A stretch of 56,017 bases of DNA, from positions 1 to 56,017 of the forward strand of contig JAGSHN010000008.1 in NCBI GenBank assembly GCA_029855935.1. Direction: 5' to 3'. How positions within the stretch are numbered: position 1 is the stretch's first letter; every line of letters begins with the position of its first letter. The notes under the pieces were generated by a model that saw nothing but the letters and a program-made list of their open reading frames with translations, had not been told where the DNA came from and did not search any database. This document shows positions 1 to 46,545 of this stretch, piece after piece. The stretch comes from Candidatus Thorarchaeota archaeon (lineage in GTDB: Archaea; Asgardarchaeota; Thorarchaeia; Thorarchaeales; Thorarchaeaceae). The translations under genes were made by a program, and so were the position numbers.

Positions 1-893
1 ATATGGGGTCAACCAACTACCAAGATGCCTTGGAGAAGACGATTCAGCTGGTCGAACACCTCAGGGTGACGGACGGCTATGGCGACAACGTCGGCGGCGT
101 GCAGGCAGGGACCGTTCTCTTCTTCTCGGATGGGAAACCGGACTTCGGAAGGGCAAGGGAGGACTTGGTCTTCCAGATTGTGGGTCGTGGCTTCACATTC
201 CACACAATGGGCCTCGGAGGGGGCGTCGAGCCGACAACCCTGCTCTCAATGGCCGAGAACGGCGGTGGACTGTACAGGCACGCAAATACGGAGGACGAGC
301 TTCAGGAGCATCTCAATCACGTCCTGTCGTTCTCTCAGAACCTCGTCTTCTCTGCGCCCAAACTGGAGATCAACGTGATGCCAGGAGCGAGGCTCAACAA
401 CGTGTGTCTCATCGCTCCACCAAGACAGCTTGTGGACAGTATCCCCGAAGGGGGGAGCGAGACTGTGACTCTGCCCGACATTCAGGCGGGGGGAATGCTA
501 GAGATAGGATATGAGGTGTGCGTTGACAATCCCGGGAGCGAGGGCCAGACACAGGACCTCATTGAGTGGAGAATTGGTGGTGCGCCACCCACAATGACGC
601 GAGTCCGCTGGGTGTCGCTTGAAGAGGCAATGATTCAGAGGCCCAATACCAGACCCACCATTGCAATGTCAATCTATCAGGGCATGTCTGCGGTGATGAG
701 TGGAGATACTCGAAGGGCGGAGGAGATCCAGAAGCGTCTGACCAAGCTCGGCCAGACGGATCCGTTCGCAGCCACCGGGGCCACAGTGGTCAGCAAGACC
801 ATCGAGGTGGGCAAGACAGGCAACCTAGGAGAACTGTTTATGCAGGTGACCCACACACGCACGAGGCGCGACGGAGGACTGGAGGTCGAATGA
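1..893 (+). CDS. vWA-domain protein, 5' end cut by the window edge
   Basis: The frame is open from the first base, so the true start lies upstream. The visible 296 residues begin inside a von Willebrand factor A domain: GSTNYQDAL fits the second MIDAS motif (the metal-coordinating Thr) and FFSDGKPD the third (the Asp loop). The first motif, DxSxS, would sit roughly 60-80 residues upstream and is missing only because of the edge. After the vWA fold (to about residue 110) comes a beta-rich region, about 115-210, like the domain that follows vWA in many secreted or signalling vWA proteins, then a short helical tail. It ends with TGA one base before the TTG start of the FHA gene, so it is the first visible gene of a four-gene operon. 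vWA proteins usually act as metal-dependent protein-binding adaptors, and TerY-like vWA proteins are known to travel with kinase/phosphatase pairs. The role here is inferred from neighbours. Confidence 0.85.
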   Translation, partial: MGSTNYQDALEKTIQLVEHLRVTDGYGDNVGGVQAGTVLFFSDGKPDFGRAREDLVFQIVGRGFTFHTMGLGGGVEPTTLLSMAENGGGLYRHANTEDELQEHLNHVLSFSQNLVFSAPKLEINVMPGARLNNVCLIAPPRQLVDSIPEGGSETVTLPDIQAGGMLEIGYEVCVDNPGSEGQTQDLIEWRIGGAPPTMTRVRWVSLEEAMIQRPNTRPTIAMSIYQGMSAVMSGDTRRAEEIQKRLTKLGQTDPFAATGATVVSKTIEVGKTGNLGELFMQVTHTRTRRDGGLEVE

Positions 894-894
894 A

Positions 895-2193
895 TTGGTG
901 AAATGCGAGATATGCGGACAGAAGCTGGTACCAGACGACCTGGCATTTGGCCTGTGTCCTAACTGCAACACTCCGATATCGGATGAGGCGCGGGAGAGGC
1001 TGCTCAAGGAGGCAGGGGTCGGAGGTACATCTGAGCCCCCAGAGGAAGGCAAGGGAAAGAAGCCGGCTGAACTCCCGCAGACTGCACAGTGCAAGTCATG
1101 CGGCGCAGCAATGCCTCTCGATGCATACAATGCGGGCACGCCCTGTCCCAGCTGTGGAGCAGACCCGAGGGTAGAACCGACCCCAGAGGGCTTGCAGCCC
1201 TCCGGTCCGGGGCCTCAGCCGCGGAGTTCTGGCGGAGGCGTGCAGATAGAAGGGCCAACATCGGAGGATCAACAACAGTCTGTGTCAGCGCCCGGGAGTT
1301 CCAGTGGGGGCGTGCAGGTTCCGCCTGATTCCTCTCCATCAAAAGGAGTCGAAGCGGCCGTGGAGCCTGAGGGCAAAACTCCACCCCCTGACTCGGTGGC
1401 TGTGTCCCAACCTTCAGGGCGACCCCCATCAGGTGAGGTCAATGTTGTTCTCGTCATTGGCGAGCTGGCAGGCAAGGAGATTGCATTGCCTCAAGACACA
1501 GACCTTGGGCGCGACGAGCTGGCCGCCATAGCCGGAAGCCGCTTCAAGGGTCTTGACGCGGTATCTCGCAGGCACTTCAAGTTCATCCTGACAGATGACC
1601 ACCTGTACATCACGGATCTAGGCTCAAAGAACGGTACGAGGGTCAACCAGGAGGAGCCCTGTGCGCCCAACGTGCTGAAGAGAGTCGAGATCAACGACAG
1701 GATAGTACTTGCTAATGGCGCCGTCGTCCTGAGGGTGACAGGCTACACTCAAGCAAAGGCAGCGATACCGCCACCGTACAGACTAAGAGACGAGGAGTCG
1801 GGGGTCACATACCCACTATACCTGACGAGCCCTGAGATCATTGGGAGGAGTCCCGTCCAGGGCGGGCCGCCGCATCCCTTCATTGAGGACATCTTCTATC
1901 ATATGATTGTCACAGACGGAGACAAGGAGAAGGCAAAGAACCGCATTGGTACAATCTCCCGGAAACAGCTGGAGCTGTTTTGTCCCAAGACCCCGACATC
2001 GGACTGGACGGGCGACCCGTCAGGAGGACAATACGAGCAGACGGTGAAGGTGATCAATCACTCACGGTACGGCACAATCGTGAATGGTCAGAAGCTCTCC
2101 AGCCCCGGAGACAGCGTCACAGTCCCGGTCACGTCACTCCCTATCACCATCGAGGTTGGAGCGTCCTTCAGATGGATACTCGAACGGGCCTGA
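895..2193 (+). CDS. Zinc-ribbon protein with two FHA domains
   Basis: This 432-residue soluble protein starts at TTG, with GTG as the next codon, behind a GGAGGT site about 8 bases upstream. Two zinc ribbons come first: CEIC with CPNC (residues 4-24) and CKSC with CPSC (about 66-88). A Pro/Ser/Gly-rich linker runs to about residue 180. A canonical FHA domain follows (about 185-275), with LGRDEL, VSRRHFKF and GSKNGT, the Arg, Ser/His and Asn signatures that bind phosphothreonine. A second FHA-like domain fills the C-terminus (about 300-432), with IIGRS, ISRKQLEL and NHSRYGTIVNG. FHA domains read phosphothreonine, so this is probably an adaptor for the kinase encoded 3.7 kb downstream. The linker suggests a flexible scaffold. 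Partner proteins are inferred. Confidence 0.88.
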   Translation: MVKCEICGQKLVPDDLAFGLCPNCNTPISDEARERLLKEAGVGGTSEPPEEGKGKKPAELPQTAQCKSCGAAMPLDAYNAGTPCPSCGADPRVEPTPEGLQPSGPGPQPRSSGGGVQIEGPTSEDQQQSVSAPGSSSGGVQVPPDSSPSKGVEAAVEPEGKTPPPDSVAVSQPSGRPPSGEVNVVLVIGELAGKEIALPQDTDLGRDELAAIAGSRFKGLDAVSRRHFKFILTDDHLYITDLGSKNGTRVNQEEPCAPNVLKRVEINDRIVLANGAVVLRVTGYTQAKAAIPPPYRLRDEESGVTYPLYLTSPEIIGRSPVQGGPPHPFIEDIFYHMIVTDGDKEKAKNRIGTISRKQLELFCPKTPTSDWTGDPSGGQYEQTVKVINHSRYGTIVNGQKLSSPGDSVTVPVTSLPITIEVGASFRWILERA

Positions 2194-2331
2194 GGACGTG
2201 TCCGCCCTATGACGGGAAGACGTGAGATGGAGGCCCGTCAATCGGAATCTGACCTGCTGACCTCTAGGCACAAGGACAGGTCCGGATGGGCTGAAACCCA
2301 GTAGTATGGGAACAAGAGGAAGTCGAGTGCA

Positions 2332-5300
2332 ATGGAAGCGCCAAGCTATGATCTCCGAGAGGAGGATGTTGAGTCAACTCGCGCGAGGTATCCCGGTGAC
2401 AATGCCGGTGTGACGACTCTAGAGGACCCAGTGAGCAAGAAGCCACAAGTGTCAGAGCCCCCGTCCGACGAGGAGAGAAGGGGACTCGATGACGGTACTG
2501 CGGACGCAGAGCCTACTCGCAACGAAGTCGAAACGGACAACGAAGGGGATGGCTCCTCAGAGTCGGGATCCGGAGAGGCTACCCGCAAAGAGACAAGAGA
2601 GGTCGAGACAACGGGACCTCTACGGCCGGAGGAGCTTGAGGAGATTGCTGGCGGCGAGACCGTTGTTGGCGCGCGGCGCGAACTCTCTCGCGGTCCTGAG
2701 GCTGCTGACTGGACCCCGCAGCTTGGAGAGGTACCGAAGAGTCCCATCTCCGTCGTCTACGCAATAGGCGATCTCCATGGCTGGGCGCCCGCGCTGATCA
2801 CGTACCTAGTAAACAATGGGCTCGCAAAGATAGAGGTCAACGGTGTCCAGCTCTACAAGACGGGCCGGGACGGGAAGATGAGTGTTGACACGAACAAGAT
2901 GGACCTGGTCTTTCCGCATCCTCAAGAGTACTTCAAGCAGAACGGCACGTTTCCCAGAGGCGTCTTTCGGGACTTCGGTGTCGACGAGATGATTGTGCAC
3001 AATGAGGGTATTCACTCCGTGAGGGCTGAATGGGTCGCGCCCGACAACGTGGCGCTCGTGCAGATTGGCGACATCTTCGACCGTGGGGACTACAGCGAGC
3101 TTGCAACAGAGATACTCAGACAGCTCGTCATCCAGGCGCCATTCAGGGTATTTGTCCTGACTGGTAATCACGAGCAGTTCCTGCTTGAGAACGATCTTGC
3201 CACTTGGCTGATGAACGAACAGAGGTTCAGTCACCTCTCCCTCCACGGTGACAAGGCCTTCCACACCCGGTTTCACGAGAAGACCTACGGCTGGAGAGTC
3301 GCAGACGAGGACACCATCCGCCGCGAGGTCTTCGACAGATATCGTATCTCAGCAACGCTGCTCTACCTGACCCAGTACGCAGCAATGGTCAGAGCAGGAG
3401 AGGCTGCTGGTGTCAGACTGCCGTCGACAGGTCGCAACACCCTCGACCTGGACAAGATTCTCAATGGCGGGTGGGATGCCTACAGATACGCCTGGGAGAT
3501 TGCAAGCGACGGCAGGTTCTCAAAGGGAGCGACGTTCCCCGGGGCCATCGTGCTGCTCGGACTCGGTCACGCACTCTTCGTCCACGCCGACCCTCTGGCG
3601 TTCAATAAGGTGGACATCGGCGGTGTCAAGGACTCCCTCAGCAGGGTCAAACTCCCCGGAGGGACCGACCTTGTGTTCCTGTTCTACGATACGGGCTCGA
3701 AGGGTGGGCAGAGCTCGAGACACGTGTCGCTGCTCTGGTCCAGAGGGGCAGAGGAGGGATCTACTGCAGAGATTCCCCGACCACGCGCGGCGGAGGCGGC
3801 GCACAACATCATCTCGGTCTTTCCAGGGACTCGACACTACGTGCACGGTCACAGCCCCACACCGATAACGAAGACGTTTATGGGCCTCAGTCCAAACTGC
3901 CCGATCACCTACCTTGCGCGAAACGCCGACGAGATTGTCGACGCCGAGCGGGGGAGCATCCGAGTCCACGTGATTGATGAGGGCATCACACCAGTCTATC
4001 GGGCCGGCGTCGCAGATGTCTACGACCCAGCTCTGGAGCCTGTTGGCCTGAGGGTCCACCCAGACCTTGTAGGTTTTCAGGATGCAGACTCGACCAGGGT
4101 CGAGACAGACAGCTCTCACTGGTTGAGGCTCATAGATTCGACGGACTTCCCTGAGTTCACAGTACCGGAGCGTCTTGCCCTCCTTGAGCCGACGAAGATA
4201 GGACGTTTCTCTCCCGGCATGAGCGTGTGGTCTGATGAAACCGCCCACCCAGAGGACCCACGACACAGGTTCACTATGCCTTGGCCGAGGATCAAGACGA
4301 CACACAGATGGTATCATTCCTCTCCGCAGGAGCCTCTCGGGAGTACTGCGGCGTTTCTCATCTATCCGACAACAGCGAAGGGCTTCTCCCGTCCGGAGCG
4401 TCTCTATATTCTGTCGAAGAGAGTCAACGTGTCTGTGGATGAGGTGTTGTTCGACTTTGGGGTCGAGTCCACCCTCGCATGGTTGACCGACAGAGATGTG
4501 AGCCGGCCCCTTGCTCTGCCTGAGGACCAGAAGGGAGAAGACTGGTTGAAGAACATCCACAGACCGGAGAAGGTCCTGAAGGACTACCTTGGGGTGCTGA
4601 GCAATGAGGGGCCAGGTGCCCTCCTCACTCAAGTGGGGATGGTGTTTGCACTGCTCACCATTGGAAAGGATGGAAGGCTTGCCGTCTTCGTGGCAAACGG
4701 TTCCGACCGTGATATCTATGTCGGCGTACGCCACCTCAACTCGGAAGACGGAGGCGAGCGAGGAATCTTTAGAGTGGACCGGTATTCCTGGAACCTCCGC
4801 ATATCAGACAGGTCACTCGGCGAGGATCCTGCGGTCTTCCTGGCACTGGGCGACGGTGAGAGAGATCTTGACCCTCCACGTGAGATACTCAAGACCGCTC
4901 TCAGTGACCTTGCCGCCAGCGAGATAAAACGCGGGCTGCTACAGGTCAGGGGCGCAGCCTGTCTACTGTGGTTCGGTGGGCGCCTTGACCGTGTTGTCGT
5001 TCGCAGTGACACCTCCGGAATCCTCGCCAGTCCGATGGCCGAGACGATGGTACTCTCATCAAGCACACGGGAGAGGGCGTCGGCTGCCCAATCAGACTCT
5101 GCCGCGCGAACACCAGAAAAGGCTGCTGACGCCTCACGTATCGCGGACGATAGACGGCCGCTGAAGAGCCATAGGGACGTTGCGCAGGCGCACCGGCCGC
5201 AGGGTCAAGTCAGGCCGGGAGAACCACGGGCACAACCGCCACGGCGCGCAAGTCCTGAGCGCGATTCAGAGTTACAGGCTGCGCTCGCTCGTGGAAAGCA

Positions 5301-5898
5301 ACATCTGCGAGGGCCGACGGGCGGGGCGCTCCGCCACGCTCCGCCTCCACCGCTGGGTAAGAAAGGTAGTACTGGCCATGTTCCCAGCAGGGCTGTGCCG
5401 AGCGGTTCTAGTCACGACGGGCATCGGGGAAAGATGGTCTCACCGCCCAAGTCATCTCCCGGCGTGGGGGAGGCAATTGTGAGAGGGGCACGCAAGGGGG
5501 TAGGCAGAGTATTCGGGGCAATCAAGTCCATCGGAGAGGGCGGAGGAAAGGTTCAGAAGATTGTACTCAGGCTGGAGAGACCAGCCAAACGGATTCTCCC
5601 TGTCGAAATAGGAGTGACGGTAGACGCCGAAGTTCTCTCACGATTTGATGTGAGAGCTCACCACGTCGACCCGAGCACACGATTCCTGTTTCACGTGGAG
5701 CGGGGAGCGATACACATCACAAACCTCTCCGGCGAGACGATGATCGTTGATGGAAAGAAGCTCAAGACCGGAAGGTCCACTCCCGTCAAGGTCGGAACGA
5801 GGTTTGTCGTCGGCCGAGCCACGTTTAGCGTTCACACCCTACCAAAGGTGAAGGACAAAATGGGCGGAGGCGGTCGCGGTCTTGGAGGACATGGATGA
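2332..5898 (+). CDS. Large calcineurin-like (PPP-type) phosphatase with C-terminal FHA-like domain
   Basis: This 1188-residue protein has an acidic low-complexity N-terminus (1-130) and then a metallophosphoesterase core: GDLHG near residue 146, GDIFDRGD near 246, GNHEQF near 278, a His-containing ALFVHAD segment near 410 and YVHGHSP near 502. These are the five PPP/calcineurin metal-binding motifs in the right order, so a two-metal phosphatase, probably acting on phospho-Ser/Thr, is well supported. Residues 600-870 form a further domain I do not recognise. Residues 900-1060 are a basic, disordered-looking linker, and the last 100 residues resemble an FHA fold (degenerate SxxH, but VDGKKL and a typical strand pattern). 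It lies 138 bases after the FHA gene and 24 before the kinase gene. It is the likely eraser of marks made by the kinase. Its size and FHA tail are unusual for the family. Confidence 0.86.
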   Translation: MEAPSYDLREEDVESTRARYPGDNAGVTTLEDPVSKKPQVSEPPSDEERRGLDDGTADAEPTRNEVETDNEGDGSSESGSGEATRKETREVETTGPLRPEELEEIAGGETVVGARRELSRGPEAADWTPQLGEVPKSPISVVYAIGDLHGWAPALITYLVNNGLAKIEVNGVQLYKTGRDGKMSVDTNKMDLVFPHPQEYFKQNGTFPRGVFRDFGVDEMIVHNEGIHSVRAEWVAPDNVALVQIGDIFDRGDYSELATEILRQLVIQAPFRVFVLTGNHEQFLLENDLATWLMNEQRFSHLSLHGDKAFHTRFHEKTYGWRVADEDTIRREVFDRYRISATLLYLTQYAAMVRAGEAAGVRLPSTGRNTLDLDKILNGGWDAYRYAWEIASDGRFSKGATFPGAIVLLGLGHALFVHADPLAFNKVDIGGVKDSLSRVKLPGGTDLVFLFYDTGSKGGQSSRHVSLLWSRGAEEGSTAEIPRPRAAEAAHNIISVFPGTRHYVHGHSPTPITKTFMGLSPNCPITYLARNADEIVDAERGSIRVHVIDEGITPVYRAGVADVYDPALEPVGLRVHPDLVGFQDADSTRVETDSSHWLRLIDSTDFPEFTVPERLALLEPTKIGRFSPGMSVWSDETAHPEDPRHRFTMPWPRIKTTHRWYHSSPQEPLGSTAAFLIYPTTAKGFSRPERLYILSKRVNVSVDEVLFDFGVESTLAWLTDRDVSRPLALPEDQKGEDWLKNIHRPEKVLKDYLGVLSNEGPGALLTQVGMVFALLTIGKDGRLAVFVANGSDRDIYVGVRHLNSEDGGERGIFRVDRYSWNLRISDRSLGEDPAVFLALGDGERDLDPPREILKTALSDLAASEIKRGLLQVRGAACLLWFGGRLDRVVVRSDTSGILASPMAETMVLSSSTRERASAAQSDSAARTPEKAADASRIADDRRPLKSHRDVAQAHRPQGQVRPGEPRAQPPRRASPERDSELQAALARGKQHLRGPTGGALRHAPPPPLGKKGSTGHVPSRAVPSGSSHDGHRGKMVSPPKSSPGVGEAIVRGARKGVGRVFGAIKSIGEGGGKVQKIVLRLERPAKRILPVEIGVTVDAEVLSRFDVRAHHVDPSTRFLFHVERGAIHITNLSGETMIVDGKKLKTGRSTPVKVGTRFVVGRATFSVHTLPKVKDKMGGGGRGLGGHG

Positions 5899-5922
5899 TC
5901 GTCAACGCGAGGGGGTGATGCG

Positions 5923-7215
5923 ATGATAGCGAACCGAGGACTTGTGGCCCTGAATCCGGGGGATGTCTTTGAGGACCTGGACACGGGACGGATGTTCGAA
6001 GTAGCGGAACATCTTGGCACTGGCGGGTTTGGTTCCACCTACTTTGTCACGGACAGTTCGTCAGGAGACAGGCTCGTTGCAAAGCTTCCTGTGATAACAG
6101 GTGACAAGCAGAACGACGAGTACAGAATCCGCAAGACGGAGCACGAGGGCGAGGTACTCAAGACTCTGCTCGACAACGGCGTTCCGCACGTGGTTCCCTT
6201 CAGGGGCCAGTTCGAGACCGAGATAGCAGGTCACAGGGTTCCTGTTGTGTTGATGGAAGTCGCTCGAGGGACTACCCTTGATGACTACATATTCAAAGAG
6301 CTGCAGGCACCGATGAAGGAGGACGAGGCACGAGAGCTCCTGCTGCAGCTCTGCACGGCGCTGCAGGGAGTGCACAGTCTTGGCATTGTCCATCGAGACA
6401 TCAAGCCGGACAACATATTCATCGACACTCAGCAGCCGGAGCGAGATCTCACGCTGATTGACTTTGGCATCGCCGCACTCTACGATAACTCAAAGACCTA
6501 CGACAAGGTAACGGCCGTGGGGACTCCATTCTTCTCTGCACCTGAGGGTATGTATCAAGGATTCGTGTCGTTCAGCGCGGACGTTTTCTCGGTGGGCGCG
6601 GTAGGTTTCTTCCTGTTGACCGCTCAGCAGCCCGCAGGGCTGAGAGGAGGATACGACCCGCGGCTCTACGAGCGTAAGGGCTTCCCGGTATCGGATGACA
6701 TCGCGCAGGTGATAGTGAAGGCCACGTGGGAGGACTTCAAGCTCCGCTACCCCACGATTGAGGACCTGATGAATGCCATCCGTGGAAGGCCACCGCTGCA
6801 TCTGATGCCACGGATAATAGTGGACGGCACATCCTACGCGATTGACAAGGACCTCATCATCATCGGTAGTGCTCGTGTCGGCTCAAGTGTCGACATTGCG
6901 ATTACGGAGAGAACGCAGGACGGCAAGTACTACATCTCTCGCAAGCACTGCTACATCAAGCTGTGCGACGACGGGCTCTACAGGCTCTACGATGGTTCTC
7001 CTGAGGGCCGTCCCAGCACCAATGGCACCGTCTGGTTGGACAAGCGTGGCAACTGGAGACGCATCCCAAGAGAGGGCCTTGTCCTTGGCAACTCGCCCTA
7101 TATGATCGGTCTGGGCTACTCGGAACCGAGAACGGGAACGGGCCGTGATATGTTCGGCCATGAGAGAATCCCTCGCGTGTACCGGACGATTGAGTACCGC
7201 CCACCCGGGACGTGA
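5923..7215 (+). CDS. Eukaryote-like Ser/Thr protein kinase with C-terminal FHA domain
   Basis: ATG follows GGGGGTGAT with normal spacing. The kinase domain covers residues 15-290: glycine loop GTGGFGSTYF, the VAIK-type lysine in VAKLP, catalytic HRDIKPDN near residue 157, DFG as IDFGIAA, and a GTPFFSAPEG activation segment with APE. All catalytic residues are present, so it should be active. Residues 295-420 form an FHA domain: IIIGSA, ISRKHCYI and STNGTVW, with Arg replaced at the usual GR position. There is no transmembrane segment, unlike bacterial PknB-type kinases, so it is cytosolic. It is the last gene of the operon; its TGA lies 38 bases from the stop of the convergent operon. Kinase, FHA adaptor, phosphatase and vWA protein together form a phosphosignalling cassette. 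The kinase may also recognise its own or its partners' phosphothreonines through FHA. Confidence 0.93.
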   Translation: MIANRGLVALNPGDVFEDLDTGRMFEVAEHLGTGGFGSTYFVTDSSSGDRLVAKLPVITGDKQNDEYRIRKTEHEGEVLKTLLDNGVPHVVPFRGQFETEIAGHRVPVVLMEVARGTTLDDYIFKELQAPMKEDEARELLLQLCTALQGVHSLGIVHRDIKPDNIFIDTQQPERDLTLIDFGIAALYDNSKTYDKVTAVGTPFFSAPEGMYQGFVSFSADVFSVGAVGFFLLTAQQPAGLRGGYDPRLYERKGFPVSDDIAQVIVKATWEDFKLRYPTIEDLMNAIRGRPPLHLMPRIIVDGTSYAIDKDLIIIGSARVGSSVDIAITERTQDGKYYISRKHCYIKLCDDGLYRLYDGSPEGRPSTNGTVWLDKRGNWRRIPREGLVLGNSPYMIGLGYSEPRTGTGRDMFGHERIPRVYRTIEYRPPGT

Positions 7216-7253
7216 CCCGAGCTCTCTAACACTGACAGTGTTGCAGAACGACA

Positions 7254-8900
7254 TCACAGCAAGGCGAGTTGACGGACCATCTCGGCCAGAGGATGATTCG
7301 GGTACCTTCGTAGCCAGTCCCCAACCTTGTTTCGCCAGCGGTCGTCAGTCTCACTCGTCACGTGTGTCACTATGATGTCTGCGAGGTCCAGCATAGGCGA
7401 GTCCTCACCTGACAGTGCAGTGTCATAGGATCTTCTTAGAATGCCCAAGATCTCGCCGGTGGCGTGAATCACGTCGGGGTGCGTCGCCCAGTCGTTGTAG
7501 ACGATCAGTGAGGACAGGGTCTCGATACGGTGGATGTTGTCGGGAGGTCGAGACCGGACAGAGTTGTGAAGGTCTTCAAGCAGCCGGACTGTCTCGGGCG
7601 GTACCTGCCCCTCCCCCCACGGCGGATTGAGAGTACGTATCAGCGACCGCAACAGTCTCCAGACGCAGGCATCTCGTGGACCGCTCTTCAGTCGCTGGTC
7701 CGCCTCAACAAGCATGGTGAGACTCAGATTGAAGGTTCTCATCGTGTGCGACTCTGGAGCAATGAGCACGGCAACGGGAAGCACCACAAGTCGCTCTCTT
7801 GGACTCAGGGATGCGACGTCGGGATATCTCGGCGAGCCAAACCAACGCCTCAATGAGGAACTCAGCGAGGTTGACGCGGCGAGCATTCTGCACAGGTCAA
7901 GGAGGGCAGGACTGTCCCCACGATCGAGCGAGTGCCCAGTGGAGTAGCAGACCGCTGGCAAAACACGTTCGAGGACATCTACGTCAGGCCTCGCGCCGTG
8001 GACCTGAAAGACCTCGTGAAGCCAGGTCACATCGGGCATTGGGTATCTCATATTGCGGTATGCCCAATCAATCGTATCGGGCGACCAGCTCTGTACGAGT
8101 CGCAGGATGTCCTCAAGGGGACGGTCCGAGAGTTGCGACGGTGCTGGCACGACCACTGCAAGAGAGGCCCGGGCGGACCACTCACTACGGGATGTCGAAC
8201 GGCTGTCAAACACGGCGTCCACGAATCTGCTCGTAGACGACTTGGCACCGTCACTACCTGGGCCCAGCCGTCTGAGCCAGGCCTCGATGATGTCAATCTG
8301 TCTGATATGCGGCAGCCTCCACACGTCAGGGGCCATCCACTCCTCCGGTAGCCGTCCAACGTGACCCTCAGAGAGTCTCCACGGTGTCTTGGAGGCTAGG
8401 AAGTCGGTGCCGAGTGTGATGAGTGCGGCGACCCACGCCAGAGGCCCCGGATGCTGCGGACCTGTGTGTCCCACCCCGGCGAACTGAATGTCTGTCGGCG
8501 TGATGTAGACCAAGGAGGGCGAGAGAGTAACAGAGCTGTCCTCAGCCGCATCGATGGCGCTCTGAAAAGAAGCAATGAACAATCTGACGATGTCCCCCGA
8601 TGGGTACCTGCCAGATGCCTGAGCGGACTGAATCACCATATCGAGGCGCTGGGCATCGTTGAGGATCAGGACCTCTGGCGGTCCGGCGAGCTTCTGAATG
8701 ACCGTAGGAAGCCCTCTCTGACCGGACTTTCTGGAGACCGCACTGGACGCGCCAACGAGGAACCGAAACCATTGCCGGCGTGTGGACGAATACAGTGCTC
8801 CGCCCCAGACATCCCTGTCCAGAGGTTCGTCAACAGCGAACCTCTCAACGCCTCCCAGGGCAGTGTCAAGAGCCCTCTTCACCTCATCCTCTGCCCTCAT
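7254..8900 (-). CDS. Helical protein of unknown function, last gene of the helicase operon
   Basis: I do not recognise this 548-residue protein. I chose the ATG at 8900 because GGAGGT stands 10 bases before it; the frame also opens at a TTG eight codons earlier (8924). The sequence is Leu/Arg/Trp-rich with regularly spaced helices and no transmembrane segment, signal peptide or clear catalytic motif. The second half (about 230-548) has the look of a helical solenoid. Helical-repeat proteins often scaffold larger complexes. It lies 79 bases after the zinc-module gene on the same strand, so it is probably co-transcribed with that gene and the kinase-helicase. No relationship to known defence components can be claimed from sequence alone. 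Confidence 0.75.
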   Translation of the reverse strand: MRAEDEVKRALDTALGGVERFAVDEPLDRDVWGGALYSSTRRQWFRFLVGASSAVSRKSGQRGLPTVIQKLAGPPEVLILNDAQRLDMVIQSAQASGRYPSGDIVRLFIASFQSAIDAAEDSSVTLSPSLVYITPTDIQFAGVGHTGPQHPGPLAWVAALITLGTDFLASKTPWRLSEGHVGRLPEEWMAPDVWRLPHIRQIDIIEAWLRRLGPGSDGAKSSTSRFVDAVFDSRSTSRSEWSARASLAVVVPAPSQLSDRPLEDILRLVQSWSPDTIDWAYRNMRYPMPDVTWLHEVFQVHGARPDVDVLERVLPAVCYSTGHSLDRGDSPALLDLCRMLAASTSLSSSLRRWFGSPRYPDVASLSPRERLVVLPVAVLIAPESHTMRTFNLSLTMLVEADQRLKSGPRDACVWRLLRSLIRTLNPPWGEGQVPPETVRLLEDLHNSVRSRPPDNIHRIETLSSLIVYNDWATHPDVIHATGEILGILRRSYDTALSGEDSPMLDLADIIVTHVTSETDDRWRNKVGDWLRRYPNHPLAEMVRQLALL

Positions 8901-8979
8901 CCGTCGAGAGACCTCCGTTCCCAATCACTGTATTCCAACATCGCCGATGCGAGAGTGAGCCAGAGTAGCTGGACGCGTG

Positions 8980-11316
8980 TCATTTGTTGCCCCCATACCT
9001 ATCGCCCTCGGAATGGGCCACAACGTTCCCGTCCGGGTCAATCAGCCACCAGCGGTCCTTCTTGAGCATTCTTCTCTCGACAGCGAGGACATACCTGCCG
9101 GACTCCTCAATCCTCTCTCGAGAGGAGCTATAGAAGGAGCATTTGTCGAGCGGCAACATAGCAATCTCAGGGGTCTCGCCGTCAGGACCTGCCTGTGCCA
9201 CTGTACTCATAGCCTGTACGGAGAGACTGTAGCGAATCAGCGCAAGTGTTGATCCCTCAGCTTGCTCGAGGCGTTTCTGGTCACAACGCGGACACTTGTC
9301 TCTCCCCTCGCCCTCAGGCTGAATGAAGCGGCAGAGAGCGCAACCGTGACCCTTCAGGGACCCTCCGTATGCCTCTACATCCCACACCTCTGCACAGTCG
9401 GGACACACGGGAATCACGATTCCGAAGGGACTCTGGAAGTCCTTGTCGGGCCGTGTGCGCTGGCACAGCCAGCAGTGTCTCTGGTGGCCCTTGCAGTAGT
9501 ACGTTGTCCTCTTTCTCCTACCTGATGTGTCCTCCACCTCCAGCATCTCAGACTTCAGGTAGAACAGGTCCTTGCCAGTCTCTTCCCTGCAGAGCTCACA
9601 TCGGGCAGACAGGCTCCGCTCTGCTATCCTGCCGTCTGCAAGACGCCGGCTCTCTGTGGTGGCAATGACATCTCCTGTCACGTCGCTCTTGACCGCGTGT
9701 CTCTTGCAGAGGTACGTACCGCGCTTCGAGTGCTGCCTCATACTGCTCTTCAGATACATAGCTGGCCTACCCGACTTCGCGCACACCTCGCACTCCTCGG
9801 CGAGGTCTCTCGCAACGGTCTTCCCTGATGCAAGCTCCACGACCTCAGAGGGTGTGTATACCCGGCCCGTGACACTACAGACGGCAGTGTGCTGAGGACA
9901 TAGTGGCGCCCCGGTCAGACTGTGATGGCTCACACTGCTGGCAAGCCACCACGGGTTTGCAGCGCCGTTCTGTGCACACACAGCGCACTCGGATGCCTCT
10001 GCCCTGTAGACCCTCTTGCCCCCATTGACAACTACTGTCTCGTCGGGCTGAACGATGACGCCTGACGCCTCGCACCTGACGGCGTGATCAGGACAGAGGG
10101 GAGCATTCGTGAAGGAGTGGTGAATGACCGCATCAGGGGCAAGCCACGCGCCACACGCTGCGCACTCTATGTGACACTTGACACAATAGGTGCCGCTGCC
10201 ATAGTCGGCCTCCCGGACGCCCGAGGCGAGTGTCACCCTGCCGCAGTTCGGGCAACGGGCCAGTGTCGGAGGAGCTTCGACTGGCCGGCCAAGTTCAAGC
10301 GGGACCGTCGCGTCAAGGTCGATGTCTGCACACTTCAGACGCACGATGGCCGGGTCCTCGATGTGCCAAGCCGCCAGCACGTTGACCTTGGGGCCTCCAT
10401 CAGGGAGCTGAAAGACGAGCTCTCCTGTCACCATAGTCCTCATCCGAAGCACTACTGCTGAGTTCACGGCAATGATGGGCGGGGTGGATATCTCTCTACG
10501 GTACTCACGAATCCTGCGGTCGTGACTAGTGATTATCTCCCTAGGCTGGCCCTCCTGTTTTGCAATCCTTCTCTGCATCTGCTCTGTCCGGAGGCGGCGC
10601 AGCCGTCGTAGAAACGCTCCGTCCTTGCGCTGCGCGTCGAGTATCTTGGCCACGACAACATCGGCTGCGGTCTCGATTGCCCGTTCCACCTCCTCCAGCG
10701 ACATCCTGAGGGAGGGCTCCACCTCTTCGACCGACAGCAATGAGCCTCGCCGTCGGACGTGCGCCCTCTGAATGTCCGGGCTCCAGCTCCATCGGGTCTG
10801 ACCATTCTGGGTGACCCGTGTCACGACAACAGGGAAGACCCCTCTATTGCCACGTGACTCGTACTCCAGCCACACCTCTACCGCGCTGCACTCGGCACGT
10901 TCAGTGGGGTCATCAATCTCTATGGGAGTGGCCCCGACAGCATAGAATGGCGGTGTCAGCCAGTCAAGGAATTGACTCAGATCAATCTCATTCTCGTGCC
11001 GGTACTCAGCATAGTGGACAGGTACGTAGTCGAGCCCTCTTGTGAGGGCCTCCACTAGAGGGTGATGCATCGTGACCAACACAACGGTGGTCGATGGGTC
11101 AACAAAGGGCTCGACCACATCACGGGGGTCGAATTTCAAGAGGTATTGCCCTGCTCCCGGCAGACCGAACACTGATGCTGAGACCTCGTCCAGCACCGTC
11201 TTCAGACCCGGACCAGCCTCCTCGACCTCCACGCCCTGTTCTCGCAGGCGGGCGGAGACGAAGTCCCTGAGCTCGTCGCGCGGGTCGCGAGTGTCAAAGG
11301 GATGTGCTATTGTCAT
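8980..11316 (-). CDS. Protein with tandem Cys/His zinc modules, helicase partner
   Basis: This 778-residue protein begins with an ATG that overlaps the TGA of the kinase-helicase gene by four bases (ATGA), so the two are translationally coupled. The first 350 residues have an alpha/beta region and then a highly charged Arg-rich helix (about 225-270) that resembles the coiled arm seen near the C-terminus of RapA-type SNF2 enzymes; that comparison is tentative. From about residue 353 it is dominated by Cys/His pairs. After CPNC/CVKC come four modules of about 65 residues, each with CxxC, a downstream LC or YC followed by xxH, and a Cys or Ser then a Gly turn (CAAC/LCPDH, CAVC/LCPQH, CEVC/LCKRH, CELC/YCKGH). 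CWLC, CPDC, CALC and CPRC pairs follow. Such arrays normally bind zinc and mediate nucleic-acid or protein contacts. The last 80 residues are not zinc-binding. Unlike any family I can name. Confidence 0.8.
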   Translation of the reverse strand: MTIAHPFDTRDPRDELRDFVSARLREQGVEVEEAGPGLKTVLDEVSASVFGLPGAGQYLLKFDPRDVVEPFVDPSTTVVLVTMHHPLVEALTRGLDYVPVHYAEYRHENEIDLSQFLDWLTPPFYAVGATPIEIDDPTERAECSAVEVWLEYESRGNRGVFPVVVTRVTQNGQTRWSWSPDIQRAHVRRRGSLLSVEEVEPSLRMSLEEVERAIETAADVVVAKILDAQRKDGAFLRRLRRLRTEQMQRRIAKQEGQPREIITSHDRRIREYRREISTPPIIAVNSAVVLRMRTMVTGELVFQLPDGGPKVNVLAAWHIEDPAIVRLKCADIDLDATVPLELGRPVEAPPTLARCPNCGRVTLASGVREADYGSGTYCVKCHIECAACGAWLAPDAVIHHSFTNAPLCPDHAVRCEASGVIVQPDETVVVNGGKRVYRAEASECAVCAQNGAANPWWLASSVSHHSLTGAPLCPQHTAVCSVTGRVYTPSEVVELASGKTVARDLAEECEVCAKSGRPAMYLKSSMRQHSKRGTYLCKRHAVKSDVTGDVIATTESRRLADGRIAERSLSARCELCREETGKDLFYLKSEMLEVEDTSGRRKRTTYYCKGHQRHCWLCQRTRPDKDFQSPFGIVIPVCPDCAEVWDVEAYGGSLKGHGCALCRFIQPEGEGRDKCPRCDQKRLEQAEGSTLALIRYSLSVQAMSTVAQAGPDGETPEIAMLPLDKCSFYSSSRERIEESGRYVLAVERRMLKKDRWWLIDPDGNVVAHSEGDRYGGNK

Positions 11317-14300
11317 CCGATGGCCACCCCCTCTGCGCCCTCTCGCTGCGCGTCCTTCTGACGTTCCTCGTCCGCCTCTGTAGGCAACACAATCTGGCGG
11401 CGAGCCTCGAGCTTCCGTGCTGCCTCCATCAGCCTCTTGAACTGGGTCCTCATCTGCTGCCTCTTTATGCGTCCCTCAAGATAGGCGTTGTACAGTTCGT
11501 CGACCTGCTTTGTGATGTCAATAGACGAGTAGAGGCTCACCAAGTCGAGCTCGCCGACTGTCTCTTGGAATAGCAGAAGGTAGTCCTTATAGGCCTCCCA
11601 GAGAGCCTTCTCCTCCTTGAGGTCGTACATAATGGTCGCGACGAAGACCATCGGATTCCTCTGTCTCAGCCGCTGAACACGGCCAATCCTCTGTTCCAGC
11701 TCTACAGGTGATCTCGGCAGGTCCATATTGATGAGGAAGTTACCGTACTGAAGATTCAGTCCACGGGACTGAGCCCGGCCGCAGACCAGGACCTCGATCT
11801 CGCCCCGATTGAACCGCCTCAGCAGGTTCTGCCGATCCATAATGCTCATCCCTGTCGTGAAGCCGTCTATCGCAACACTTGGCATTGCCCGCTTCAGGGT
11901 CTTGAGAATGGCATCGCGACCAAGATTTGTCCCTGCAAACACGATGACCGGAGAGACACCAAGACCTGCTGAGTCAACCTCCCACTCACCCATCTTGACC
12001 TTCTGCCTTGTTGTCTGATGCCTCTTGAGCACATCGATCAGTGCCCTGAGCTTCGGGTCGCTCATCATCCTGCCAGGGTCGCTGAATATCTCCTCAGTCT
12101 CCTGCAGAATGATTCTGATGGCTGACTTCACATCCTTGCTGAATCCTCGTCTGCGGAGAAGAAGGCGCAGCTGAGTCGCCGTCCGTGACTCCTTGCCCGT
12201 CTTCGTCCGTTGGTGAATGGCCAGCGCGAGTTCGTTAACCGACTGAGTGAACCAGCGGAAGAGGACCCGGCCTATACGTTGAACGTCGTCCCCCTCCGCA
12301 AGCAGTTGGCGAATGGCTCTCTCGATCCTCTTCTCGGACTTGCCAAGCTGGACGATGATGTTCTTCGCCTCCCTCTTCGGGAAGATTATGCTGGGCACAT
12401 CTGCCCGCGTATGACGAATCATCACTTGGGAGAGCAGACCGCGGAGCTGCCTGAGGTCCTGAAGGGACGCTGTTGAACCGTATCTCTTTGCGAATTCCCT
12501 GTAGTCTCCAGCAAGGATTGGGTCGATGGCTCGTATCATAGGGTAGATCTCAGATGGAGACCTCTTCATCGGTGTGGCTGTCACAAGCAGGAGATATCTC
12601 GGGTCCAGTCGGTACAGCCTCTGCCATCTACGACCCTCTGGACTTGCCCCCAGCTCGTGGGCCTCGTCAACGACGACGGCATCCCACTTTATGCGACTCG
12701 GCTCGAAGAGCTCCCACGTACTGTCGACATCTTTTGGATAGATGTCGGCATAGGCCTCAGGGATTGGACGGTCCTCAAGAGCGTGCCAGAAGGTCGCGAT
12801 GATCCGCTCGCCCTCGACAGGCCGGGGCTCGCCCGGCTCCCAGATCCTGAAGCCGCCGGGGTCATCGGGTCCGAGGTGGAACTTCTCGTCGAGCTCCGAG
12901 AGCCACTGGTACTGTAGCTCGCTGCTCGGCACAAGAATCAGAATGGAGTCAATCAGGTCACGGTAGATGAGCTCTCTCAAGATTATGCCGCACTCGATGG
13001 TCTTGCCCAGTCCCACGCTGTCAGCGATTATGCATCTGCCGTCGAGGTCCCTCAATGCTCTGAGGACGGTGTCCTCTTGATGCTCGAACGGCTTGATGTC
13101 CAGTGAATAGTAGACCTCAAGCGTTTCGAACCTGATACCAGACCTCGCAAAGGCCAGCATCGACTTTGGCGTGGGCGTCGGCGTATTGATCAGCCGCAGC
13201 CGGCCCCCTCTGACCACCCGCGGTGTCTTCGGTGCCAACAGAGGGTCGCTGGACTTGCAGATGCTCTTGTGGATCTTCCAGAGCTCATAGTTCGTTGTGG
13301 ACCAATAGCAGTTTGGACAGGTGTAGAGCATGATGTCGGATGTCGATCTGGAGCCACCACCACCATCAGTCTGGACATTGGGATGCGCCTCTGCGTAGTG
13401 AGCGTTCAGCGAACTCAGCGGCACCTCCTTCGAGCAGACGGGACAGACCGCAGTCGGGCTCTCATAGACAAGAGGAGTCAGACAGTGATAGCAGAGAGCC
13501 CAGCCCGGTGCGGTCGGCGCCCCACACTCAGGGTTGGGGCACAGTTCGTGGACCTTCTTTCGTCGTAGTCCAGCCACGGTTGCGCGTCGTATGAGCCTCG
13601 CAAAATCGCGGATCGTGGGCCTCTTCTGTGGAGGCTGTTCCCAGCAGTCCCTGCATAGTGATATGAACTCCTTTAGAGCGTGATTGGTCAGTACCCATTG
13701 CGGCCATCCCCTCTCCGGACCCGCGTTTGCGTCTCCGCGAATGTCGCCCTCCAGCACCCAGTAGAACAAAAGACCCAGGGAGAACATATCGTGCCACGGC
13801 TGAGCGGGCGTCCCGGGTACCAGCTGGTCATGGTCTGCCCAGTCCCTTGAGCCCTCGCCATGCCCCAGCTCGCCGATTCTCAGTGCTATGCCAAGGTCTA
13901 TGAGTGCGACTGTGCCGTCCTCCGCATAGAGCACGTTCCGCGGGTTGATGTCCCGATGGACGAGGCCAAGATCCACATGAAGGTGATACACAAGACCAAT
14001 GAGGCGCTGAGCGAAGTTCAGGAATCTCTCCTCGCTGTCCTCTCTGTCAAGAAACGGGTTCTCGCCGTTGCCCCGGTCCTTGAGAATGACCGACAGAGGC
14101 TGTCCCTCATAGTAGCGCCGGTAGGATGTGTATCCGCCGGGGCCGCTGTCGTCCTCGTAGACGGCGTGCTGAAAGCCGGACTTGACAATCTTGGAGAGAA
14201 TTCGATGCTCGCGACGGATGAGATCAGCATAGTCGGGACTCAGAGCACGCTTTCCGACATAGAGCCTTCCCACACTGTCGTTGAGGTCGCGGAAGAGAAC

Positions 14301-14366
14301 TATCTCTGCTTGGCCGCCGCGCGCGAGAACACGTACCTCTTGCCACCTGAACCGCCGCGCCGGCAC
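11313..14366 (-). CDS. Ser/Thr kinase - zinc finger - SNF2-type helicase fusion
   Basis: This is a 1017-residue single chain. Residues 1-275 are a protein kinase: ARGGQAEIVLF as glycine loop, VGKRAL with the lysine, HRDINPRNV near 136 as catalytic loop, and IDLGIA in place of DFG (Asp kept). Residues 280-375 hold four-cysteine and C2H2-type zinc fingers (CPNPEC/CYHC, CPVC with a spaced HxxxxH, CPNC with HKSIC). Residues 395-1000 are an SF2/SNF2 translocase: Walker A ADSVGLGKT near 446, DEAH near 567, TATPMK as motif III, and QRIGRVQRLRQ near 891 as motif VI. Both engines look intact. SNF2 proteins translocate on double-stranded DNA and remodel bound proteins. Upstream by 7 bases is a small FHA-like gene, and downstream the zinc-module gene overlaps by four bases. 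The fused kinase may phosphorylate partners when the helicase engages DNA (inference). Confidence 0.93.
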   Translation of the reverse strand: MPARRFRWQEVRVLARGGQAEIVLFRDLNDSVGRLYVGKRALSPDYADLIRREHRILSKIVKSGFQHAVYEDDSGPGGYTSYRRYYEGQPLSVILKDRGNGENPFLDREDSEERFLNFAQRLIGLVYHLHVDLGLVHRDINPRNVLYAEDGTVALIDLGIALRIGELGHGEGSRDWADHDQLVPGTPAQPWHDMFSLGLLFYWVLEGDIRGDANAGPERGWPQWVLTNHALKEFISLCRDCWEQPPQKRPTIRDFARLIRRATVAGLRRKKVHELCPNPECGAPTAPGWALCYHCLTPLVYESPTAVCPVCSKEVPLSSLNAHYAEAHPNVQTDGGGGSRSTSDIMLYTCPNCYWSTTNYELWKIHKSICKSSDPLLAPKTPRVVRGGRLRLINTPTPTPKSMLAFARSGIRFETLEVYYSLDIKPFEHQEDTVLRALRDLDGRCIIADSVGLGKTIECGIILRELIYRDLIDSILILVPSSELQYQWLSELDEKFHLGPDDPGGFRIWEPGEPRPVEGERIIATFWHALEDRPIPEAYADIYPKDVDSTWELFEPSRIKWDAVVVDEAHELGASPEGRRWQRLYRLDPRYLLLVTATPMKRSPSEIYPMIRAIDPILAGDYREFAKRYGSTASLQDLRQLRGLLSQVMIRHTRADVPSIIFPKREAKNIIVQLGKSEKRIERAIRQLLAEGDDVQRIGRVLFRWFTQSVNELALAIHQRTKTGKESRTATQLRLLLRRRGFSKDVKSAIRIILQETEEIFSDPGRMMSDPKLRALIDVLKRHQTTRQKVKMGEWEVDSAGLGVSPVIVFAGTNLGRDAILKTLKRAMPSVAIDGFTTGMSIMDRQNLLRRFNRGEIEVLVCGRAQSRGLNLQYGNFLINMDLPRSPVELEQRIGRVQRLRQRNPMVFVATIMYDLKEEKALWEAYKDYLLLFQETVGELDLVSLYSSIDITKQVDELYNAYLEGRIKRQQMRTQFKRLMEAARKLEARRQIVLPTEADEERQKDAQREGAEGVAIG

Positions 14367-14373
14367 TGTCGAT

Positions 14374-14847
14374 TCACCCCTTTATCTTGAAGACCCACCA
14401 CGGACCGAGGAGGCCCCACAGAACCTGCCCTCGGCCTACCCCCATAGGCTCACTGCCTGCACCAGCATCAGCAACCCACTTGCCTTGGCTCGACAGGACA
14501 GCCACACCCTGACCGAGCCACCGGACATTGCCGTTCACATTCCAGACCACAAGTGCTGCGCCGTCAAATCGCAGACCGGGGTCCACCATCACGTGATCAA
14601 TATCTGCAATGTCAACGTCTTCAATGGGGAACATTCGCCCAATCCTGACGCCCCTCCCCTCACGAAGGACAAAAGAGAACGTTGCGGGCTGTCCTGGTCG
14701 AATGTCCAGAAGTGTGAGTGAGGGTGCAGCAAGCTCTCTCTGGGCCGGTGCTGCAAGACCTGAACTCGGAGGATGCAGGTCTGCCCAAGAACTCACGGTC
14801 TTTCTGAGCCGCTCGGGGTCAAGGAACTCTGTGACTTCCGCTCCCAA
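14374..14847 (-). CDS. Small FHA-like protein, first gene of the kinase-helicase operon
   Basis: This 157-residue frame starts at TTG, with AGGTG seven bases upstream, and stops seven bases before the kinase-helicase ATG. The middle and C-terminal parts are a run of beta strands: VRIGRMFP resembles the first FHA signature (GR), and WNVNGNVRWLGQG sits where strands and the Asn turn of an FHA domain would be. The SxxH signature is not visible, so an FHA fold is only a suggestion. The protein is soluble, with no signal peptide. Its position at the head of the leftward operon makes it likely to be an adaptor or sensor for the kinase-helicase. It could also be an unrelated beta-sandwich protein. 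Confidence 0.62.
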   Translation of the reverse strand: MGAEVTEFLDPERLRKTVSSWADLHPPSSGLAAPAQRELAAPSLTLLDIRPGQPATFSFVLREGRGVRIGRMFPIEDVDIADIDHVMVDPGLRFDGAALVVWNVNGNVRWLGQGVAVLSSQGKWVADAGAGSEPMGVGRGQVLWGLLGPWWVFKIKG

Positions 14848-28207: not shown

Positions 28208-28246
28208 CCACGACCTCGGCAGATACTGACGACACTCGATTAAGTC

Positions 28247-28274
28247 GCACGGGAGAACGCCGGGCATCCCGTGC
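28247..28274 (+). terminator. Hairpin after the first NosD gene
   Basis: GCACGGGA and TCCCGTGC form eight-base-pair perfect arms around a 12-base loop, 40 bases after the TAG of the first NosD gene. The same position after the decayed fourth copy keeps TCCCGTGC and most of the other arm. It has no T-run, so it may be a processing or stability element and not a classic terminator. Confidence 0.45.
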
Positions 28275-28334
28275 GCACCCCAACTACCCGGCCAGCGCGC
28301 GCTGGAGTATGGTCAGCGCAGCTATTCCACCTCT

Positions 28335-29312
28335 CTAGTTTAGGTCGAGGCTGCCTCTTCTCCTCGAAACTGGTTTCCCCATTCCCCCATTCAAGTCAAG
28401 CCGAAAGTACTTGATAGGTCGCGATGTCCCAAGATTGTCAAACTCCTGAAACGTCTTCTCCAATGCTGAATCAGTCCCGCCTGGTGCAACACCCACGGCC
28501 GTGGTAGAGGCGAGAGAACAACTTCTGAATCCCTGCATAGATATCATTTGGTTCGGCCAGTCTTGCCAACACAAGTCTTGGCTGTTGAGCTGGGCTGGGC
28601 CAACCGAGTGGAGCACTTCGGGCTGGACGTCGGTCAAGATCTCACGCTTGCGCACTCGAACGAGGTACCATCTCTCACCTATGTATCTGGGCAAAGTCTG
28701 CGGATAGCACGTTGCCCGTCAAAGTCATATCTCTCATCACTTGAGAGAAACTCATCTGAGTTCCACCCGCTAGTTTCGACTCTGCGGCTACCAGTGTGGA
28801 ATGGGCTGCGAATGGCGCTAGTGAGTTCAACATATCCCCTCTCCTCAGTTGGACTCCAAATCCATCCAACGAACGCCACGTACCAACGACACCAGGTTAC
28901 CTCCGTGTACACCAGCACTGGTAGCAGTAGGAGATTGCCCCACGCTATGTGAATTCGCCCCGTTTCAGCTGGTTCACCAGCGGATCAGTCATCGCCAGCG
29001 GCGACTGGACTTGGCACTAGCACGAATACGACTCCAATCAAGATGGCTCTTCGGATTTCGCTTTCACGTGTTCGTGTAGCGGAGGTCAGGTTGGCGTAGT
29101 CACTTGAGACGGCGCAGGCACAGACCTCGCTGAAAGGGGCGGGATTTTAGGGATACGACATACGGGGGAGCCACTGGCAAGACCGACAATGGTGCAGCCC
29201 TGAGATTTGGATACCCAAGTGTACTGACGAACCCGTCAAAACCGCGCACCAAGGCGGCGACTTCGATTCGGTTGGCATCGAAGAGGAACTGTACACAGAA
29301 GACATAATACAT
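28335..29312 (-). pseudogene. Decayed minus-strand gene between NosD copies
   Basis: Two minus-strand fragments share peptides with other copies in the window. The left end (28335-28500) encodes VAPGGTDSALE and IKYFRLDLN, matching VAPGGIDSRLE and IKYFRLDLD at 37420-37560. The middle encodes FLSSDERYDFDG, matching FLSSDTRYCFGG at 25100-25160. The right end encodes a hydrophobic start ending in DGFVSTLGYPN, matching DGFVISWGHVN near 25330. No single frame joins the parts, so it looks like a gene broken by several indels. Its function is unknown. Confidence 0.45.
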
Positions 29313-29337
29313 GGGCCGTGCGACGGGGCTTGGGTGG

Positions 29338-32673: not shown

Positions 32674-33287
32674 ACAGGAGCGTCCTGTGTTGAAACAGGG
32701 GCCCGGTGTGTCAGGATGCAGCCGACCGGAGAACCATGTTTCGACGAACGACACCGGGCCCAGCACAGCTTCAAGAGACCAGAGAATCTTGAGCATTCGT
32801 AGATCAGCAGCCCACGTTTCCGGATATATCCGAGGACTTGTGGCCACACGAATTCTCCAGTGTTCCGCTGCACGATGGAAAACTCGATTGGTGCTCTCGT
32901 GGCACCGACCGTCCGATTGATGGCTGGACCAACATCATGGAAATAGAACGCAGGTGCAGAGCAGACTCGAGCCCAGCCACAGCAACATCGTTCTTATCCG
33001 CCCCCTTAAGCCGCTCACGACAGCACGAAGCCTGAGTGTCCAGTTCGACGATGAGTCCTGCGCGACAGAAACACGGAGTCATCTAGAGGACACGGGCAAT
33101 TTCTGGTGTCATCCTCTGATCACATCATACTGGCGCGAGTGCTGGCAGTCTGCACCTTGGAACTCTTCGATGCGCGTGGGCCTTGACGCAGTAGTCAGTT
33201 CTTTTCTGCTAGGGAGAGGACTAGTATTAGGAGGGGCCTATCCCCCTAAGAAACAATACTTGGACAGCGCGAGAAGGCCTTGGGTGG
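32674..33287. other. 614-base stretch between the second and third NosD copies
   Basis: It holds no convincing gene. At its left end are two hairpins: CCTGT/ACAGG (32684-32699) and the 11-base arms listed separately. The right end has GCGAGAAGGCCTTGGGTGG just before the start codon, as in the flank before 25454. The rest shows overlapping short frames on both strands, none with a ribosome site or recognisable domain. Confidence 0.5.
32699..32761. repeat. Inverted repeat of 11-base perfect arms with 41-base loop
   Basis: GGGCCCGGTGT (32699-32709) is the exact reverse complement of ACACCGGGCCC (32751-32761). A smaller hairpin (CCTGT/ACAGG, 32684-32699) touches its left arm, so the two compete for bases. 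It begins 26 bases after the TAG of the second NosD gene. It could fold at the RNA 3' end, or be the ends of a very short, target-free element. There is no T-run and no flanking direct repeat that I can see. Confidence 0.6.
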
Positions 33288-42439: not shown

Positions 42440-42452
42440 CTTCTCGCTCTGC

Positions 42453-46478: not shown

Positions 46479-46545
46479 AGAAGCCAACTCCTCTCTCTCG
46501 GCATCAGGACTCGAGAGTCGGAATAGTTGGTGCTACTATCGAACC

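What the first reader, a model, noticed from the sequence alone, without database searches (positions are those of the whole stretch)
1..14847. Phosphosignalling cassette facing a kinase-helicase operon: candidate undescribed system
Seen: a rightward operon with vWA, zinc-ribbon/FHA, PPP-type phosphatase/FHA-like and kinase/FHA proteins, and a leftward operon with an FHA-like protein, a kinase/zinc-finger/SNF2 fusion, a four-module zinc protein and a helical protein; the stops are 38 bases apart. Known: vWA, phosphatase and kinase triads (TerY-type) and type VI secretion threonine-phosphorylation loops combine writer, reader and eraser, and SNF2 enzymes occur in several defence systems. Inference: here all these parts and a DNA translocase form one module in which phosphothreonine marks control the helicase, perhaps against foreign DNA or during DNA damage. 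I know of no named system with this exact set.
Basis: partly seen in the sequence, partly recalled or inferred. Interest (0 to 1): 0.88.

Follow-up and report, generated by a model that had tools for sequence, protein, structure and literature searches.

The report
Kinase-fused DNA motor beside phosphosignalling operon
In what looks like an Asgard archaeon, a DNA-pumping enzyme with a protein kinase welded to its front sits tail-to-tail with a complete set of phosphate-writing, -reading and -erasing genes; each half is a known, widespread kit, but this join, and the swapped-in phosphatase, were seen nowhere else in the data searched.

Summary
The genes are real. Rightward: vWA (cut by the contig end), Zn-ribbon/FHA, a PPP-type phosphatase and a kinase-FHA. 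Leftward: a 157-aa protein, a kinase/zinc/SNF2 fusion, a zinc protein and a 556-aa orphan. Stops are 38 bases apart. The two "FHA-like" calls (phosphatase tail, 157-aa protein) were not supported.

Each half has relatives. The rightward operon is a vWA-FHA-phosphatase-kinase quartet, found in the same gene order in cyanobacteria and Chloroflexota, and reordered in another genome of the same phylum. Those carry PP2C; here an unrelated PPP enzyme takes its place. The leftward core is a YqhH/YqhG-type pair: SNF2 followed at once by a coiled-coil partner, as in 70 of 101 SNF2 loci inspected. Only here is a kinase plus zinc ribbons fused in front of such a pair; one other kinase-SNF2 fusion turned up, in a Chloroflexota Hma anti-phage operon.

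The halves were not found together elsewhere: 0 of 101 SNF2 loci had the quartet, and no quartet locus read had SNF2. So "one conserved module" is not supported by neighbourhood; coupling rests on the kinase fusion and adjacency. Best reading: a phospho-controlled DNA translocase assembled from two known kits, perhaps for defence or DNA damage. New variant of known kinds.

The parts
3..893 (+). vWA protein, C-terminal 296 aa; N-terminus with the MIDAS start lost at the contig end
   Evidence: Pfam VWA_3 below cut-off; BLASTP to the intact 440-aa vWA of L154, E 1e-7; contig edge
895..2193 (+). Zn-ribbon/FHA reader; first FHA with canonical LGR...SRRH...SKNGT, second degenerate
   Evidence: Pfam FHA E 6.7e-13, 2 stretches; motifs; relative in L154, E 1e-5
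2332..5898 (+). PPP-type phosphatase (eraser), 1188 aa, long C-terminal region of unknown fold
   Evidence: Pfam Metallophos E 1.2e-7; GDLHG/GDIFDRG/GNH/HGH; no similarity to the PP2C of L154
5923..7215 (+). Ser/Thr kinase with C-terminal FHA (writer/reader)
   Evidence: Pfam Pkinase E 5.7e-35, FHA E 1.4e-4; 32% full-length identity to the kinase-FHA of L154
7216..7253 (.). 38-base gap between the two convergent operons; no terminator-like site found by a bacterial-type scan
7254..8924 (-). 556-aa orphan, no family match
   Evidence: no Pfam, PADLOC or NCBIfam match; no plasmid match
8980..11316 (-). YqhG-type SNF2 partner: N-terminal alpha/beta domain, coiled coil (about 196-276), beta domain, ten CxxC
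   Evidence: colinear BLASTP with the SNF2 partner of Halocatena, E 1e-5; partner-family profile E 1.7e-4 before inclusion; Chloroflexota partner E 2e-4; N-terminal domain pLDDT 83-94
11313..14366 (-). kinase (1-265) / zinc ribbons (276-371) / RapA-like SNF2 motor (413-1001) fusion
   Evidence: Pfam; motifs HRDINPRN, GLGKT, DEAH, TATP, QRIGRVQR; SNF2 part matches stand-alone SNF2 proteins
14374..14847 (-). 157-aa orphan, first gene of the leftward operon; FHA fold not supported
   Evidence: no family match; fold prediction of no use

Best explanation
Two known kits have been brought together in one archaeon to put a DNA motor under phosphothreonine control. Shown: the leftward operon encodes a RapA/YqhH-like SNF2 motor with its usual YqhG-type coiled-coil/zinc partner, and the motor has gained a kinase and zinc ribbons at its N-terminus. 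Shown: the rightward operon is a vWA-FHA-phosphatase-kinase quartet whose PP2C has been replaced by a PPP enzyme. Inferred: the two kinases phosphorylate threonines in the motor complex or its clients; the FHA domains of the Zn-FHA protein and of the operon kinase dock on those marks and, with the vWA, build the complex; the PPP phosphatase resets it. Inferred: the marks switch the motor, so that it strips or remodels proteins on DNA only after a signal, somewhat more likely foreign DNA than ordinary DNA damage. The trigger is unknown; zinc ribbons or vWA may sense nucleic acid or metal.
For: Kinase, zinc ribbons and SNF2 in one reading frame with catalytic motifs intact: the strongest sign of phospho-control of the motor. 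SNF2 with partner immediately downstream in 70 of 101 loci; in the window the two genes overlap by 4 bases. Partner homology. Quartet in conserved order in cyanobacteria and Chloroflexota, reordered in L154, with kinase-FHA 32% identical, vWA E 1e-7 and FHA E 1e-5. Precedent: a kinase-SNF2 fusion as HmaA in a Chloroflexota Hma operon. The two operons are convergent with 38 bases between stops. Lean to defence: haloarchaeal SNF2-partner pairs beside DUF1156 or DUF499 genes; no ortholog of the SNF2 fusion in 59 relatives, nor of the zinc partner or phosphatase in 228 phylum genomes.
Against: The two operons were not seen together elsewhere. Convergent genes share no promoter. Chance adjacency of two accessory modules is common. 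No substrate site, FHA ligand or trigger was tested. The only functional data found on a YqhH is UV survival (PMC10054049), which points to repair rather than defence.
Confidence: 0.5

Rival explanations
1. Two independent modules that happen to be neighbours: a quartet with its own unseen clients, and a self-contained kinase-SNF2 motor regulated only by its own fused kinase.
For: 0 of 101 SNF2 loci carry the quartet; the quartet loci read carry no SNF2; the operons are convergent, not co-directional; the window begins at a contig end, so the quartet's own clients may lie off the contig.
Against: Both sides bring a kinase, and a kinase-SNF2 fusion is itself rare (one other among the loci read); neither side has a close relative in the phylum genomes searched.
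Confidence: 0.37
2. Same coupled unit, but its job is DNA damage or replication stress, as suggested for YqhH in Bacillus, not defence.
For: The SNF2/partner core is the YqhH/YqhG type; yqhH knock-out lowers UV survival (PMC10054049).
Against: Patchy: absent in three congeners and the other relatives searched, and the phosphatase has a decayed copy, more like an accessory than a housekeeping system; plasmid relatives sit beside DUF499 or DUF1156 genes.
Confidence: 0.2
3. A decaying or recently acquired locus with no present function.
For: A second copy of part of the phosphatase gene on contig C30 is a relic: 73% identical over 520 bases, three stops.
Against: All eight window genes are open and motifs are intact; GC, GC3 and codon use match the rest of the window and contig C30.
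Confidence: 0.05

Closest known systems
TerY-P triad (vWA, PP2C, Ser/Thr kinase with C-terminal zinc ribbon; described in PMC11090510, citing Anantharaman 2012)
   Same: vWA, phosphatase and kinase in one operon; associated there with DNA-processing and helicase systems such as Type II and III-A CoCoNuTs; the SNF2-fused kinase is followed by zinc ribbons, as in TerY-P
   Different: phosphatase is PPP, not PP2C; an extra Zn-FHA reader; the operon kinase bears FHA, not a zinc ribbon; the helicase is SNF2 and fused to a second kinase
vWA-FHA-PP2C-kinase quartet of cyanobacteria, Chloroflexota and one genome of the window's phylum (assembled here; not found as a named system in the papers searched)
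   Same: same parts and, outside the phylum, same gene order
   Different: PPP in place of PP2C; neighbouring SNF2 operon
YqhH/YqhG pair (SNF2 + PF11079)
   Same: SNF2 gene with partner gene immediately downstream, partner with coiled coil
   Different: kinase and zinc ribbons fused to SNF2; partner expanded with ten CxxC; no Pfam YqhG match for the window partner itself
Hma (BREX-related DUF499) system with kinase-fused HmaA, Chloroflexota L177
   Same: kinase N-terminal to a RapA-like SNF2 motor
   Different: has DUF1156 methylase and DUF499 ATPase; different C-terminus (NOV_C); no quartet
DISARM DrmD, DpdE, RapA
   Same: same branch of SNF2 enzymes
   Different: scores far below curated cut-offs; other system genes absent

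Membership tests
TerY-P triad | TerY-like vWA with MIDAS | not testable with these tools
   N-terminal part beyond the contig end
TerY-P triad | PP2C-family phosphatase | tested here: not met
   only Metallophos/PPP found; no similarity to the PP2C of L154
TerY-P triad | kinase with C-terminal zinc ribbon | tested here: inconclusive
   operon kinase has FHA instead; the SNF2-fused kinase is followed by DZR-like ribbons, 19.8 bits against a cut-off of 27.3
vWA-FHA-PP2C-kinase quartet | vWA, Zn-FHA and kinase homologous, in order vWA-FHA-phosphatase-kinase | tested here: met
vWA-FHA-PP2C-kinase quartet | PP2C as third gene | tested here: not met
   PPP in that place
YqhH/YqhG pair | SNF2 gene with partner immediately downstream, same strand | tested here: met
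   4-base overlap in the window; 70 of 101 loci alike
YqhH/YqhG pair | partner homologous to the YqhG-type family | tested here: met
   partner-family profile E 1.7e-4 (later rounds 0.84 and 0.009), colinear BLASTP E 1e-5, phmmer E 2e-4; no Pfam PF11079 match by itself
DISARM (DrmD) | DrmD over curated cut-off | tested here: not met
   151 and 136 bits against 950 and 610
Dpd (DpdE) | DpdE over curated cut-off | tested here: not met
   172 bits against 500
RapA | RapA over curated cut-off | tested here: not met
   132 bits against 576
Hma / BREX-related | DUF1156 methylase and DUF499 ATPase beside the helicase | tested here: not met
   none among the eight genes
Type VI secretion threonine-phosphorylation loop | T6SS structural genes beside kinase, phosphatase and Fha | tested here: not met
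   none among the eight genes by Pfam or NCBIfam; rest of the genome not searched

The most novel reading that the evidence does not exclude
One integrated system: a prokaryotic DNA translocase whose activity is set by a dedicated phosphothreonine writer, reader and eraser set, with an in-cis kinase and a PPP phosphatase swapped in for PP2C, used by an Asgard archaeon against foreign DNA.
Probability: 0.28. Interest if true: 0.78.

Novelty: new variant of a known kind. Interest (0 to 1): 0.5.

Why it matters
Kinase, reader and eraser control of a chromatin-remodeller-like motor is a eukaryotic theme (FHA, SNF2, PPP); a prokaryotic example in the archaeal group nearest to eukaryotes could be tested biochemically. 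Independently of that, the work gives two more ordinary results: the zinc protein is a divergent YqhG-type SNF2 partner, and the vWA-FHA-phosphatase-kinase quartet is a conserved unit in which the phosphatase family can be exchanged.

Tried and rejected
Defence-family filing: DrmD, DpdE, RapA, PglW, MAD6 and HmaA all hit through shared kinase or SNF2 domains; where a curated cut-off exists (NCBIfam), scores are far below it. FHA in the phosphatase tail and in the 157-aa protein: not supported by Pfam or a local FHA profile. Fold prediction of the 157-aa protein (pLDDT 42) and fold search of the zinc protein (no PDB match with E below 1) led nowhere. Viral or phage origin: no relatives of the phosphatase in viral contigs, only weak kinase matches for the kinase-FHA, no phage match for the SNF2 fusion. 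Recent transfer by composition: GC, GC3 and codon use of both operons are like the rest. The first genome scan, with the fusion alone, found nothing; the second, with a profile, found 80 SNF2 loci. Kinase hits on Chlorohelix and Paenibacillus plasmids had no quartet around them.
Full report
Where it is. The window is the whole of contig C3 (56,017 bases) of a 32-contig, 2.97-Mb genome, 97% complete. Base 1 is a contig end.

Rightward operon. vWA (3-893), Zn-ribbon/FHA (895-2193), PPP phosphatase (2332-5898), kinase-FHA (5923-7215). The kinase has the catalytic motifs. In 228 genomes of the phylum, one other (G054, L154) has both a vWA relative (E 3e-5) and by far the best kinase relative (E 3e-36), on one contig. 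Its operon reads Zn-FHA, vWA, PP2C, kinase-FHA. The kinase-FHA proteins are 32% identical over their length, the vWAs match at E 1e-7, the FHA proteins at E 1e-5; the phosphatases do not match. A Tolypothrix plasmid has vWA-FHA-PP2C-kinase in the window's order. A profile of these vWAs gave full-length matches in 13 of 234 cyanobacteria and 3 of 241 Chloroflexota (the profile contains the Tolypothrix sequence, so cyanobacterial scores are favoured). Of the 16 regions fetched, 14 could be read: all have vWA and kinase, 13 the FHA gene and 13 the PP2C gene by my simple gene caller, in the order vWA-FHA-PP2C-kinase; L267 and L269 gave no calls. None of these shows an SNF2 match, and no SNF2 gene is seen in L154 or annotated in the Tolypothrix stretch. 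Part of L154 upstream of its operon is masked, so that side is unseen.

Leftward operon. The SNF2 part of the fusion (residues 413-1001) matches stand-alone SNF2 proteins on haloarchaeal and cyanobacterial plasmids; no plasmid match listed covers the kinase. Those SNF2 genes are mostly followed by an unnamed gene. The Halocatena one is colinear with the window's zinc protein (20% identity over 517 columns, E 1e-5 for a single comparison). A profile comparison with seven partners was weak (probability 14%). A profile grown from 27 SNF2-adjacent partners found the zinc protein at E 1.7e-4 without its being included; in later, Bacillus-dominated rounds it fell to 0.84 and then 0.009. A Chloroflexota partner matched it directly at E 2e-4. 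The Bacillus member of the family is YqhG, PF11079, E 3.5e-127. Over 101 SNF2 loci (plasmids, genome contigs, Chloroflexota and Halobacteriota samples), 70 have the partner at once downstream. In the window the SNF2 stop and the partner start overlap by 4 bases. Predicted with its relatives, the N-terminal domain of the zinc protein is confident (pLDDT 83-94), the zinc part is not.

Do the halves go together? Of 101 SNF2 loci, kinases appear in two: L177, a kinase-SNF2 fusion of 1483 aa followed by HmaB-like DUF1156 and HmaC-like DUF499 genes, and L184, a separate divergent kinase. No locus has FHA, PP2C or PPP relatives; two have a distant vWA (L059, L180). So absence is good evidence against a common conserved module, not proof that none exists.

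Turnover. Contig C30 of the same genome starts with a relic of the phosphatase gene: 520 bases, 73% identical to window 4137-4656, with three stops. A second such locus was once there, or the gene was copied. Neither the SNF2 fusion (59 relatives), nor the zinc partner, nor the phosphatase (228 phylum genomes each) has a close relative; many of those genomes are incomplete.

Reading. I commit to a phospho-controlled motor assembled from two kits, at 0.5. The fusion is direct evidence that kinase and motor belong together. That the neighbouring quartet serves the same motor is inference from adjacency and shared logic. For the purpose, defence is favoured by the Hma precedent, the haloarchaeal plasmid relatives beside DUF1156 or DUF499 genes and the patchy spread; repair is favoured by the UV sensitivity of a yqhH mutant (PMC10054049). 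TerY-P triads linked to helicase systems are the nearest described idea (PMC11090510); the papers found name no system with this set, but the library lacks most subscription journals.

Noticed in passing
L030 (G000:C30) 72-591: Decayed second copy of part of the PPP phosphatase gene in the same genome, 73% identical to window 4137-4656, three in-frame stops.
   Followed up: yes
L177 8686-19727: Chloroflexota Hma operon whose SNF2 helicase carries an N-terminal Ser/Thr kinase; HmaB- and HmaC-like genes follow.
   Followed up: partly
L020 7628-10669; L021 1-2079: Large ATPase of HerA/VirB4 look in two genomes of the phylum with a YqhG-like coiled-coil/beta/zinc module at its C-terminus (profile E 7e-8 to 1e-7 before inclusion).
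   Followed up: partly
L034, L036, L040: Haloarchaeal plasmid SNF2-partner pairs lie beside DUF1156 methylase or DUF499 genes, as if the helicase of a BREX-related system were split in two.
   Followed up: partly
window 38025-39230 and 42056-42836: DNA methylase (N6_N4_Mtase) and a HEPN / nucleotidyltransferase pair; a similar-looking pair lies at L030 11396-12197.
   Followed up: no
window 19129-21174: Long protein with Ig, endonuclease/exonuclease/phosphatase, fn3 and lamin-tail domains, probably a secreted nuclease.
   Followed up: no
window 25454-33941 and 45216-47995: Neighbouring genes with very similar N-terminal stretches, apparently two families of duplicated surface or membrane proteins.
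   Followed up: no
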